Origin: Taxawa tesnikishii (nom. ined.)
Lineage: Eukaryota; Ascomycota; Dothideomycetes; Dothideales
Assembly: GCA_030247885.1 (NCBI GenBank)
Contig: JAPDRO010000015.1
Span: 496,001 to 560,000, forward strand
Direction: 5' to 3'
Length of the DNA: 64,000 nucleotides
The position numbers and the translations under genes were made by a program. Shown piece by piece: positions 1,025 to 61,593 of this stretch. The notes under the pieces were generated by a model, which was not told the origin of the DNA, searched no databases, and saw nothing but the letters and a program-made list of their open reading frames with translations. Positions within the stretch are counted from its first letter, which is position 1. Each line of letters begins with the position of its first letter.

Positions 1025-2894
1025 ATGCGCAGAGCTTGGAAGCCATGGCGAGCATTATGCAGCGGCTCGCTGGCACCCGGAACTTCATTGAACCTCCGTG
1101 AAGCTCCGTTCAGAGTACGCCCTCTATCAACTGCTCCACTACAATCTCTTTATACAACAAATTCCCTCTCTGTCCAGTCCCGGAACATCTCAGCAGATTC
1201 TCAATCTCAAAGCCTCGCTGCAGACCCAACCATCTATGCTCTCTCCACAGCCCCCGGCCGCGCCGCAATTGCCGTCATCAGAATATCCGGTCCAGCGTGC
1301 AGCACCGTCTACCACGCCCTCTGCCCGTCGCGCAACCTCCCAAAGCCTCGATACGCAGCCGTCCGGACTCTCTATGAGCCCGACCAAGCACCAAGCCCGG
1401 AAAACGTTCTAGACTCGAACGCGCTCGTTCTCTACTTTCCCGCTCCGCGCACCGTGACCGGAGAGGATGTTCTGGAATTGCACGTCCATGGCGGCCAAGC
1501 CACGGTCAAGGCTGTGTTATCCGCAATTCCCAAATGCTCGAAGATAGGGAAGGTGGAGGAGTCATCAGATATGCGGAGCCGGGCGAGTTCACCAAACGCG
1601 CATTCATGAACGATCGACTGGATCTGACGCAAGTGGAAGCTCTGGGCGACGTGCTCTCCGCAACTACGGAGCAACAGCGTCGTCTCTACGTCCGCGGGAC
1701 CACGAACCAGCTCTCGCGCCGTTACGAAGCCTGGCGCTCGCAGCTGCTGTACGCGCGGGGGGAGCTGGAGGCGTTGATTGATTTCTCCGAGGATCAGTAT
1801 TTCGACGAGTCGCCTGCTCTTCTAACAGCGTCTGTGGCCGAGCAAGTGCGCAGGCTGCGGACGTTGGTACAAGCGCACAGCAAGAATGCCGTCCGAGGGG
1901 AGCTGCTGAGGAACGGGATAAGCATTAGTCTTCTCGGTGCGCCGAATGCGGGGAAGAGCAGTCTGTTGAATAGGATTGTCGGGCGCGAAGCAGCGATTGT
2001 CAGCCAAGAGGCGGGCACTACACGCGACATTGTCGAGGTCGGAATTGATTTAGGGGTTATTTTTGCCGGCTGGGTGATACGGCTGGGTTGAGGAGGATTG
2101 CGCAAGCGGGCCTGAACACACTACCTGGAGAGACGGTAAATGAAGGAGGCGAGACGGAGATCAAGCAGGGTATCATCAGCAAGATTGAGCAGGAGGGAAT
2201 GAGGAGGGCAAAGGAAAGAGCGACGGAAAGCGACGTCGTGATCGCGGTGCTTTCGTTCGAAAGGCAGTCACACGACCCTGATACCACGTTTCTCGCAGTC
2301 GATTCCGAAGTTGCGGGAACGGCAGCGGCATTGACTGCAGAAAAACGCAACGTTCTTGTCGTCGTGAACAAGACCGACCTAGTGCCCTCCAAAACCACCA
2401 CCTCCTCAGCTCTTCAAACCATTGAAACCGCAATCCCGGGCCTCGCGGCCAGCCAGATCCATTTCGTCTCGTGCAGAGAGGCCGAACTATCCAAATCCCC
2501 CGATCACGTCGACCCTGGAAGGATTCAAGCATTTCTGACCGGTCTGGTTTCCAAATTTCACGAAATGACTTCCCCACTGGGGACGTCGGATCCGAGTGCG
2601 GGAGAAGCGGACCCGTCGTTCTGGCAAGAATCGCTCGGTGCGAGTGAACGGCACAGGTTGCTGCTGGAAGAATGCCAAGAACACCTGACCGCTTTCCTGG
2701 CCGAGGTCGAAGGCGAGTATGCTGAGGAAGTCGGCGAAGAACACTATGGGAACGATGAAGTTGATGTCGTGCTCGCTGCGGAAAGTCTGAGAGCTGCAGG
2801 AAACTGCCTTGCTAGGATTACTGGTAAGGGCGAGGCAGGTGATGTGGAGGAGGTACTCGGTGTGGTTTTTGAGAAGTTCTGTGTAGGAAAATGA
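1025..2894 (+). CDS. MSS1: Mss1/MnmE-type mitochondrial tRNA-modification GTPase (frame broken twice)
   Basis: GTPase that with Mto1 installs the carboxymethylaminomethyl group on U34 of mitochondrial tRNAs (family knowledge). The start is taken at ATG 1025, after which an Arg-rich presequence fits mitochondrial import; the frame extends further up only to a GTG. The N-terminal tetrahydrofolate-binding domain shows TGEDVLELHVHGG and YAEPGEFTKRAFMN. The G domain has G1 GAPNAGKSS, G2 TTRDIV, G3 DTAG and G4 NKTD. The protein ends FCVGK, the family's catalytic Cys tail. Total length is about 623 residues, normal for the family. The frame shifts at about 1530-1555 and at the G run 2053-2056. Each break behaves as one lost base, with homology continuous across it and no intron signals. 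I treat these as sequence errors rather than a dead gene. Confidence 0.93.
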
Positions 2895-4172
2895 GCACGA
2901 GGAAAAGACTTCCCATAAAAAGTCCCTTCGCTCACCTTTGTTGAAGCATTATTCGCGCTTTACGTGGCTTTCGCGCACGCTTTACTCGCGCTTTGCTTCA
3001 GCTTCGCCAAACATCGAGTTGTCTAATCCGTAACCATTACCGGTCCGTGAGTCACACTGAGCGCCTCCGCGCGCAACGAAACACCTCGAGTATGGGAGAT
3101 CACGTCAGAACGAGAAGATGGAATGGATGGAGAACGAAGAGAAGGCACCGACGACGACATCATGTTTCGAGTGGTATACACTGATTGCAAGCCAGGGGCG
3201 TAATTCCGCACCCCGTCCATTCTCACTCCTCCGCCACTTGCATTGTGCTCCTTCCAGCCCAAGACGGACGACGTCGCCTCCGTACCAACATGCAACCAGT
3301 ATCATCGCTTCAAATGGACATGGGATCGGACGGTCACATTTGGCAAATGTTTGCCCGTTTCACTCCACGCACAATTAGTTGACCGGAAAACTGCGTCCGC
3401 GTCCTCGCCGTCACGTGCTATGTGAGCCACAGGCACCGTGAGTTGCTGCGGTTGCACTCCACCCGGCGGGTGTGGACGCCAATGAGAGATACAGTGGAGG
3501 CGAACGACAGGATCCGTGAGCATTGTCTAGATCAAGAGATCGAAACTAAGGGGTAACCGAGCTTCATTTCCAGGTTCTTTGGCAGCATGAGCAGCGAGCG
3601 GAGATTCGGTTCTGACGAGCAGTGCTTCCGGGCCCGGACGGTCGTACGGCCGTTTGTCCGAGCAAGGAGTTGGTGTTAGATGTTGCGTTCTCGAGTCGGA
3701 TTGGTTGGTTCAAGGCCATCGTTGCTGATGCCTGATGAGCTCTGATGTGGTCTTGTTGAAGGATGGTAAGTGTCTATGACGGAAGAAGCAAGCGGAAGGC
3801 TGGCTGGCGATGGCTGAGCTTTTGTGAAGCACAGTAGGCCGAGGAGCGCATGGCATCTTGCTTGATTGATCGTCTGCAAAGTTCCGTCTACACGGCTTCC
3901 TGCGTTGGGAATCGATCCTTTATATGGACGCAAAATGCATGGCGAGCGCAACCGAGTATCCACGCATCCACGTATCCCGTATATTGAACGAGAACCAGAA
4001 GCTGTACGGTAGTTCTGAAAGTATACCACATTCATGACCGGAATCTCCGCAACGTACAGGCTTACGGATGAGAATCATGTCCAAGATGCAAAAGGCATGC
4101 TCATGATCTTTGATTCATGGCAGATGGGTATCAATATCTCACAACCTTCCATCCTTCCCACAGTCCCCTCTA
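2895..4172. other. Intergenic, convergent 3' ends of MSS1 and PSD
   Basis: No supported gene. Open frames here (for example 3676-4035 minus) have no recognisable domain and no consistent coding composition. Confidence 0.6.
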
Positions 4173-60258: not shown

Positions 60259-61593
60259 TTACTGCTCATTGACGACGATGCCCCACTCGTGGCTTTGCCT
60301 TCCGTACATGATGTCCTCGAGCCAGGTCTTGAACTTCTGGGTGTAAGCTCCGATGGTGCCTTCGCTCAGAGGGATACTCATATCCTTGTCCTTCCATCCA
60401 ATGGTGCCCACGGGAGTGATGAAGTAGGCAGTTCCAGCCTGCAACAGTATATCAGCAAAAGTACGTTCATTCCGGGTGAAGCCGTGACTTACCGCAAAAG
60501 CTTCAATCATGCGGCCTTCCTCCACAGCCTCCGCTATCTCACCAATAGTGAACTTGCGCTCGACGACCTCGACCTCATCTTTAAGGTTCGTTCTCGCGAG
60601 ATCCAGCACACTAGCTCTGGTAACGCCCTCCAGGATCATGTTGCCCTCGAGCGGGGCGGTAACGAGCTGCTTTCTGCCCTCCTTCGTGTTCCACATGAAG
60701 AAGATGTTCATAGCACCAGCCTCCGTCACCCAGCCCTCAGGGCCAAATAGCCAAAGGATCTGGTTGTAGCCCCTCTTCTGGGCCTCACCAGACGCAATGA
60801 GCGAGGGGCCGTAGTTGGCTCCGACCTTTGCGAATCCGAATCCGCCTGACACCTGTTAACGGTTGCCTAGAGCGGAAGGATCAGCATCACTTACCAGGCC
60901 ATGCGCGCACGGAATCTTCTTTGCTCGCCAAAAGCTTCAGTCCCTGGTTCGCAGCCGCCGGGATCGGGAAGCAGGAGATGATGATGAACAGCATAGCCTC
61001 CCTGGGCATTTGCACACCCAGCGTCGCGTCCGTGCCGATCATAGTTGGGCGGATGTACAGGAATGAGCCCGGCCGATCCTTCGGCAACCATCTTGCGCCG
61101 TCCACTTCGCACAGCTTGATGATCAGCTTCTCGAGCTCCGCAGGCTCAAAGTCGGGAAGTGCAATGCGCAGAGCAGACCTCCGCATGCGCTCGCAGTTCT
61201 TGCGGATCCGGAATACGCGCAGAGAACCGTCGTAGCCACGGTACAGCTTCAGACCCTCGAAGCATTCGGTCGCATAGTGAAGAACAGAGGCGGTTGGCAT
61301 GAGAGTCAGTGGTCCGTAGGGCTTGATCTCTGGTGCTTCCCAGCCGGTCGTGTTACGCCAGACGGCCGTTACCATGTGGTCGGTGCATGTTTTTGTGTCT
61401 TTGGACGCCGGGTCATCTGGGGTCGGGACGGGTCTGAGGTCCTTACTGCGGGTAACCTTAGTGGGGAGGCATCGAGGTTGGCCAAAGGCTTCTGTTCCTT
61501 GTGTTGGTTGAGAGCTCCGGCTTGTGTGAGGGTGGTGGTTGTAGGGGTGGCGGTGCCTGATGCAGGCGGTGTAAGGGGCGCTGATGATGCCAT
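60259..61593 (-). CDS. Branched-chain amino acid aminotransferase (3 exons, one frame break)
   Basis: PLP enzyme of the last step of Leu/Ile/Val synthesis and first step of their breakdown. Exons on minus are 61593-60895, 60845-60493 and 60438-60259; introns of 49 and 54 bp with GTAAGT donors. About 410 residues. Signatures: CTDHMVTAVW, GPLTLMPTASVLHYATECFE, GLKLYRGYDGSLRVFR, RPGSFLYIRPTMIGTDATLG, the PLP Lys in GGFGFAKVGANYGPS and GPEGWVTEAGAMNIFFMW. The N-terminus is Ser/Thr/Pro-rich and not clearly a mitochondrial presequence, so a cytosolic isoform is likelier (inference). The frame shifts at 61430-61432, one C short on the coding strand, before the catalytic core. Confidence 0.94.

What the first reader, a model, noticed from the sequence alone, without database searches (positions are those of the whole stretch)
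1025..61593. Recurring one-base losses break conserved genes in one direction
At sixteen points in twelve genes (MSS1 twice, PSD, DUF2457-type twice, GH5, GT34, DUF8004-type, COG1 twice, F-box-like, LOS1 twice, RPB6, DUF7729-like, aminotransferase) homology jumps to the frame expected if exactly one base were absent. Most sites are short G, C or T runs, for example 2053-2056, 4443-4446, 54176-54179, 58467-58472 and 61430-61432. Adding one base at each site makes total lengths divide by three and match family sizes. RPB6 cannot plausibly be dead. Uncorrected indels are therefore the best reading, and automated gene calls here will be fragmented or called pseudogenes.
Basis: partly seen in the sequence, partly recalled or inferred. 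Interest (0 to 1): 0.7.

Follow-up and report, generated by a model that had tools for sequence, protein, structure and literature searches.

The report
Missing-base errors in a fungal assembly
This stretch of a fungal genome assembly carries many single-base gaps that break conserved genes on paper; the same happens in other parts of the assembly, and it looks like uncorrected sequencing error rather than biology.

Summary
At all 16 claimed junctions the two reading frames are offset as if one base were absent, and no intron fits between the peptides. Six junctions have homology on both sides; DUF7729 has it too but depends on intron phase; the other nine rest on coding statistics, open frames or peptides I recognised from memory. 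Two names are not upheld (DUF8004, F-box) and the aminotransferase coordinate is about 25-35 bases off.

The window plus 25 sampled 10-kb stretches from 14 contigs gave 27 called losses to 4 gains. Three breaks met in genome-wide family searches, including a second-largest RNA polymerase subunit gene, are one base short as well. G/C runs of 4 or more lie at 7-8 of 16 junctions (1.4-2.0 expected), and G/C runs of 6 or more are scarce (12 against 41-112 expected). A tRNA in the window has a T loop one base short; of five copies in the assembly three are short and two full. Ribosomal recoding cannot rescue a tRNA. Best reading: homopolymer undercalls in a long-read, probably nanopore, assembly. 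No reads could be checked.

The parts
1547..1563 (+). MSS1/MnmE-like GTPase gene (about 1025-2879), first frame break
   Evidence: TrmE_N profile 1-95 in one frame, 90-117 in the next; gap 17 bases; coding model used an intron instead
2050..2072 (+). MSS1, second frame break
   Evidence: MMR_HSR1 profile 2-42, then 50-113 (weak, E 0.084) in the next frame; MnmE_helical 1-97 then 144-211; called by the coding model
4441..4452 (-). Phosphatidylserine decarboxylase gene (about 4173-5567), frame break
   Evidence: PS_Dcarbxylase pieces; recalled peptides in two frames abut; upstream exon piece alone has no Pfam match; coding model used an intron
11842..11924 (+). DUF2457 gene (about 11470-13837), first frame break
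   Evidence: DUF2457 profile in the downstream piece, none in the upstream one; coding model loss at 11878; no intron of fitting phase
13544..13633 (+). DUF2457 gene, second frame break (profiles overlap at 13544-13568, peptides put it at 13599-13633)
   Evidence: DUF2457 profile 1-373 in one frame, 366-466 in the next; coding model loss, placed at 13215
22973..22989 (-). GH5 gene (about 21305-23049): signal-peptide-like start and mature part in different frames
   Evidence: Cellulase profile in the long frame; start only in the other frame, which has no Pfam match
30011..30021 (+). GT34 gene (ends 31473), frame break before the catalytic domain
   Evidence: Glyco_transf_34 downstream, nothing upstream; gap 11 bases; coding model used a 44-base intron
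33851..33858 (+). Gene called DUF8004-type (about 33110-36426), frame break
   Evidence: gap 8 bases between open frames; no Pfam match; coding model used introns; weakest of the 16
38864..38873 (-). COG1-like gene (about 37491-39822), second frame break
   Evidence: peptides in overlapping open frames, one base short; no Pfam match in these pieces
39046..39055 (-). COG1-like gene, first frame break
   Evidence: VPS51_Exo84_N in the upstream piece; one base short; coding model sees the two COG1 breaks as one gain
40510..40544 (+). F-box-like or 2EXR-like gene (about 40363-41285), frame break
   Evidence: coding model loss at 40508; gap 35; weak 2EXR match upstream, none downstream
50183..50196 (-). 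LOS1/exportin-T gene (48381 to about 51512), second frame break
   Evidence: Exportin-T profile 52-100 then 98-190 in the next frame; coding model
50317..50339 (-). LOS1/exportin-T gene, first frame break
   Evidence: Exportin-T profile 3-57 then 52-100 in the next frame; coding model
54172..54184 (-). RPB6 (RPABC2) gene (about 53838-54502), frame break in the conserved core
   Evidence: upstream piece matches chain 6gyk_F residues 12-82 (E 0.01), downstream piece residues 81-101 (E 2.5e-6); Rpb6 profile; coding model; C-terminal exon matched once in the assembly
58465..58476 (+). DUF7729 gene, frame break just after an intron
   Evidence: profile 1-43, 48-129, 130-207 in pieces; no GT-AG candidate restores frame
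61457..61464 (-). Branched-chain aminotransferase gene (60259-61593), frame break near the N terminus
   Evidence: coding model loss at 61468; solved-structure alignment in the downstream frame from 61456; upstream piece has no Pfam match
62890..62990 (-). Intron-bearing tRNA gene (lysine CUU by my reading of the anticodon loop) whose T loop (T arm 62898-62913) is one base short
   Evidence: one-position gap in the Rfam alignment; 5 copies of this T arm, 3 short and 2 full

Best explanation
The breaks are consensus errors of the assembly. The genome was most likely built from long noisy reads (probably nanopore) without adequate short-read correction, and the base caller or polisher dropped one base at many places, preferentially in short G/C runs. 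The living fungus very probably has intact genes. Shown: the frame offsets, their single direction, their spread over sampled contigs, the G/C-run link, the shortage of long G/C runs, and short and full versions of one tRNA. Inferred: the sequencing technology, and that the true bases exist in the organism.
For: Sixteen of 16 junctions one base short. Coding model with equal priors: 27 losses, 4 gains in 314 kb (binomial p 3e-5), with similar power for both when planted (85 of 150 losses, 78 of 150 gains recovered). Of the 4 gains, COG1 shows two losses by peptides and L016 has a 77-base, intron-sized gap in a continuous profile. Homology breaks outside the window, 6 of 6 one base short (arithmetic): found without knowing the direction, an RNA polymerase second-subunit family gene, a TCP1 chaperonin family gene and an HSP70 family gene; found by following model-called losses, Na/H exchanger, GT90 and Es2. 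The polymerase gene is also a model call, so 4 of these 6 are among the 27. G/C runs of 4 or more at 7-8 of 16 junctions under a uniform rule, 1.4-2.0 expected, at most 1 of 2000 random sets as high. G/C runs of 6 or more: 12 seen, 58 expected from an order-2 chain (112 order-1, 41 order-3); runs of 4 in excess, 1164 against 1056. tRNA: three of five copies lack one base in the T loop. 34 contigs for 29.4 Mb suggests long reads. Precedent (passages read): PMC7500977 and PMC8011154.
Against: No reads, second assembly or RNA were available. At 6-7 of 16 junctions there is no run of 4 or more, so runs are not the whole cause. For the 19 losses called outside the window, the G/C-run enrichment is weak (7 against 3.2, 48 of 2000 as high), as poor localisation would give. 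PMC7500977 found overlong runs more often than short ones after polishing, so the direction differs between pipelines. Two of the four called gains (L006, L013) are unexplained. The tRNA copies also differ elsewhere, and the short window copy scores higher (52.4 bits) than the full ones (46.2 and 39.9), so real differences between copies cannot be ruled out from sequence alone. I had no error-free fungal genome as a false-positive control.
Confidence: 0.97

Rival explanations
1. Programmed -1 ribosomal frameshifting, used widely in this fungus, reads through the breaks.
For: All 16 offsets have the sign that a -1 shift would correct.
Against: A canonical X XXY YYZ heptamer in frame lies near 1 of 15 junctions tested, 0.7 expected by chance. 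A tRNA gene shows the same kind of defect in three of five copies, which translation cannot rescue. No search for other shared shift motifs was made.
Confidence: 0.005
2. Real mutations: a lineage without mismatch repair, or a decaying or heterozygous genome, accumulating run deletions.
For: Run-length loss is the expected spectrum of mismatch-repair defects (recalled).
Against: RPB6, whose C-terminal exon matched once in the assembly, and a second-largest RNA polymerase subunit gene would be dead; one junction per about 1.9 kb of model-coding sequence seems not survivable in a haploid.
Confidence: 0.01
3. Misread introns: the frame jumps are ordinary short introns.
For: Introns are common here (223 called in 314 kb, median 63 bases), and the model bridged four of the 16 (MSS1-a, PSD, GT34, DUF8004-like) with introns. 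One of four called gains (L016) is intron-like.
Against: Gaps between peptides are -10 to 35 bases in 15 of 16; the exception has no intron of fitting phase; none of the GT-AG candidates restores frame at DUF7729. For PSD, GT34 and the DUF8004-like gene this rests on recalled or merely protein-like peptides.
Confidence: 0.01

Closest known systems
Residual homopolymer indels in nanopore-only assemblies (PMC7500977, Drechmeria coniospora; PMC8011154, Homopolish)
   Same: One-base errors at short runs that break frames in conserved genes and fragment gene calls.
   Different: Here the called errors are mostly losses; the Drechmeria paper saw overlong runs more often after polishing. The technology of this assembly is not known to me.
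Programmed -1 ribosomal frameshifting
   Same: Sign of the frame offset.
   Different: Slippery heptamers no more than chance would give, and a tRNA gene is affected as well.
Genome-wide recoding at stop codons as in Euplotes ciliates (recalled)
   Same: Many genes with frame offsets.
   Different: A tRNA gene is affected as well. I made no motif search for a shared signal.

Membership tests
Homopolymer undercall errors of a long-read assembly | Single-base losses greatly outnumber gains | tested here: met
   27 to 4 by the model; 16 of 16 by peptides; 6 of 6 by homology outside, 3 of them direction-blind
Homopolymer undercall errors of a long-read assembly | Sites enriched in homopolymer runs | tested here: met
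   G/C run of 4 or more at 7-8 of 16, 1.4-2.0 expected (first version with hand-set spans, 8 of 15); 6-7 of 16 have no run of 4 or more
Homopolymer undercall errors of a long-read assembly | Long runs scarce in the sequence at large | tested here: met
   G/C runs of 6 or more 12 against 58 (order-2 chain); A/T runs of 6 or more only mildly low, 53 against 64 (314 kb)
Homopolymer undercall errors of a long-read assembly | Spread over the assembly, hitting essential and RNA genes alike | tested here: met
Homopolymer undercall errors of a long-read assembly | Raw or accurate reads contradict the consensus | not testable with these tools
   no reads available
Programmed -1 ribosomal frameshifting | Slippery heptamer at the shift site | tested here: not met
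   1 of 15, 0.7 expected
Programmed -1 ribosomal frameshifting | Confined to translated genes | tested here: not met
   same kind of defect in three of five copies of one tRNA
Spliceosomal introns | GT-AG interval of viable length joining the two frames | tested here: not met
   given the peptides

The most novel reading that the evidence does not exclude
The bases are truly absent and the fungus restores frames in very many genes by an unknown recoding or RNA-editing step that also mends tRNA.
Probability: 0.004. Interest if true: 0.95.

Novelty: not a real feature. Interest (0 to 1): 0.1.

Why it matters
It is a quality warning. At about one break per 1.9 kb of coding sequence in this window (16 in 31,152 model-coding bases), many genes in this assembly may be fragmented, falsely called pseudogenes or missed: the Rpb6 family search over the whole assembly returned nothing (introns contribute to that). 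Gene loss, pseudogene or selection claims from it would be unsafe. The five-copy tRNA may serve as an internal check that needs no reads.

Tried and rejected
Codon-shuffled exons as a false-positive control were uninformative, because shuffling keeps each piece in its frame (12 losses and 4 gains were still called). ARAGORN did not call the short window tRNA, but it called none of the four other copies either, short or full, so it says nothing. PF00133 and PF00004 searches gave no clean junctions. In the chaperonin and HSP70 searches most neighbouring hits are separated by distances that an intron could explain; only overlapping pairs (one in each family) were counted, a 28-base gap (C3:921508-921535) was left as ambiguous and an odd pair on C33 (1185333-1186406 and 1186742-1187251) was left aside. 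Of the 19 outside losses, pieces of 13 were scanned with Pfam (11 on both sides, 2 on one side); 4 gave consecutive matches on both sides, one hit a repeated FF domain on both sides (not decisive), 8 were uninformative; 6 were not scanned. My first run-enrichment test used 15 junctions with three spans widened by hand; I repeated it with a uniform rule on all 16, with much the same result. A paper search for the organism by size and contig number found nothing useful. The A14 count (48 forward and 54 reverse overlapping positions in 29.4 Mb) seems low to me but there was no fungal yardstick.
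Full report
Setting. The window is C7:496001-560000 of a 29.37 Mb assembly in 34 contigs, with introns of median 63 bases by my model and gene families that I take as fungal.

Checking the 16 points. I translated the frames around each claimed gene and measured the distance between the last recognisable peptide of one frame and the first of the next. The peptides were chosen by eye with the claim in mind. All 16 distances are 2 modulo 3, one base short. Fifteen lie between -10 and 35 bases and leave no room for an intron of 40 or more; the 83-base one holds no intron of suitable phase; the DUF7729 site follows a 49-base GT-AG interval, but none of the three candidates restores the frame. 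Homology covers both sides in six cases: MSS1 twice (one side under cut-off or weak), LOS1 twice, RPB6 (upstream side E 0.01) and the second DUF2457 break. DUF7729 has consecutive profile matches too, but there the break is deduced from intron phase. The first DUF2457 break, the F-box-like one and the aminotransferase are backed by the coding model. PSD, GH5, GT34, COG1 twice and the DUF8004-like one rest on open frames and peptides, mostly recognised from memory; Pfam gave no help on the untested sides.

A count without homology. I built an intron-aware gene model with equal prior for a lost or gained base and trained it on the window plus 25 stretches of 10 kb from 14 contigs. It called 27 losses and 4 gains (binomial p 3e-5); changing the penalty keeps the bias (40:7 to 6:1). 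Planted losses and gains are recovered about equally (85 of 150, 78 of 150; positions with at least 200 coding bases on either side). The window's 8 of 27 losses is no excess (expected share 0.20, P 0.17). Six of the 16 window sites were missed by the model, and two more were merged into one gain. Of the four gains, one is COG1, where peptides show two losses, and one is intron-like (L016); L006 and L013 are unresolved. I had no error-free fungal genome to measure false calls.

Homology elsewhere. The RNA polymerase second-subunit family has three loci in the assembly, as polymerases I, II and III would give (recalled); one, at C7:204655-205739, continues from profile 1-330 into 326-373 in another frame with a 16-base overlap. 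A chaperonin-family gene (C1:528261-528264) and an HSP70-family gene (C3:494622-494625) show 4-base overlaps of the same class. These three were met without knowing the direction. Na/H exchanger (L012), GT90 (L011) and Es2 (L021) genes were looked at because the model had called losses there. All six are one base short.

Runs. With one rule for all 16 junctions, 7-8 hold a G/C run of 4 or more (1.4-2.0 expected, at most 1 of 2000 random coding sets as high) and 9-10 hold any run of 4 or more (2.2-3.1 expected); 6-7 hold none. For the 19 poorly localised outside losses the G/C enrichment is 7 against 3.2 (48 of 2000). In 314 kb, G/C runs of 6 or more number 12 against 58 from an order-2 chain trained on the same sequence (112 for order 1, 41 for order 3), and runs of 4 are in excess (1164 against 1056); A/T runs of 6 or more are only mildly short (53 against 64). 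This is what undercalling of G/C runs would leave behind.

The tRNA. The tRNA gene at 62890-62990 aligns to the Rfam model with one position missing in the T loop. The same T arm occurs five times in the assembly, three times one base short and twice at full length. The five align as copies of one intron-bearing gene, with some other differences, and the Rfam alignment shows the gap only in the short ones. Against a simple reading, the short window copy scores higher than the full ones because those carry mismatches elsewhere. T loops of seven bases are near universal (recalled). Ribosomal recoding cannot act on a tRNA.

Rivals. Slippery heptamers occur near 1 of 15 junctions tested, 0.7 expected. 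Real inactivation would kill RPB6, whose C-terminal exon matched once, and an RNA polymerase subunit gene. Introns are dealt with above.

Literature, passages only. PMC7500977: in nanopore-only assemblies of a fungus, fewer than one-sixth of 305 conserved genes were predicted full length at first, and about one-fifth were still wrong after long-read polishing, mostly through homopolymer errors; there the runs were more often too long. PMC8011154: in one bacterial isolate deletions rose from 5039 to 7891-11,753 after four polishers while insertions fell. So the kind of error is known, and its direction depends on the pipeline.

Verdict. The sixteen breaks are there in the assembly, run one way, recur in other contigs, and are best read as sequencing errors.

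Noticed in passing
window 62890-62990 (-): tRNA (lysine CUU by my reading) with an intron and a T loop one base short; three of five copies with this T arm share the defect.
   Followed up: yes
G000 contig C25, and C26 with C28: tRNA hits on C25 are mirror-symmetric and C26 and C28 carry near-identical tRNA clusters, as in duplicated or concatenated organelle DNA in a long-read assembly.
   Followed up: no
G000:C1:572421-574634: A tRNA synthetase-like match reads through 8 stops while a nested stretch matches in another frame; introns or compensating errors.
   Followed up: no
window 16955-19975 (+): A 1007-codon open frame without any Pfam match at E up to 0.1.
   Followed up: no
window 41914-43443 (-): PAN-domain protein with three PAN_4 stretches; the coding model calls no break in it.
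   Followed up: no
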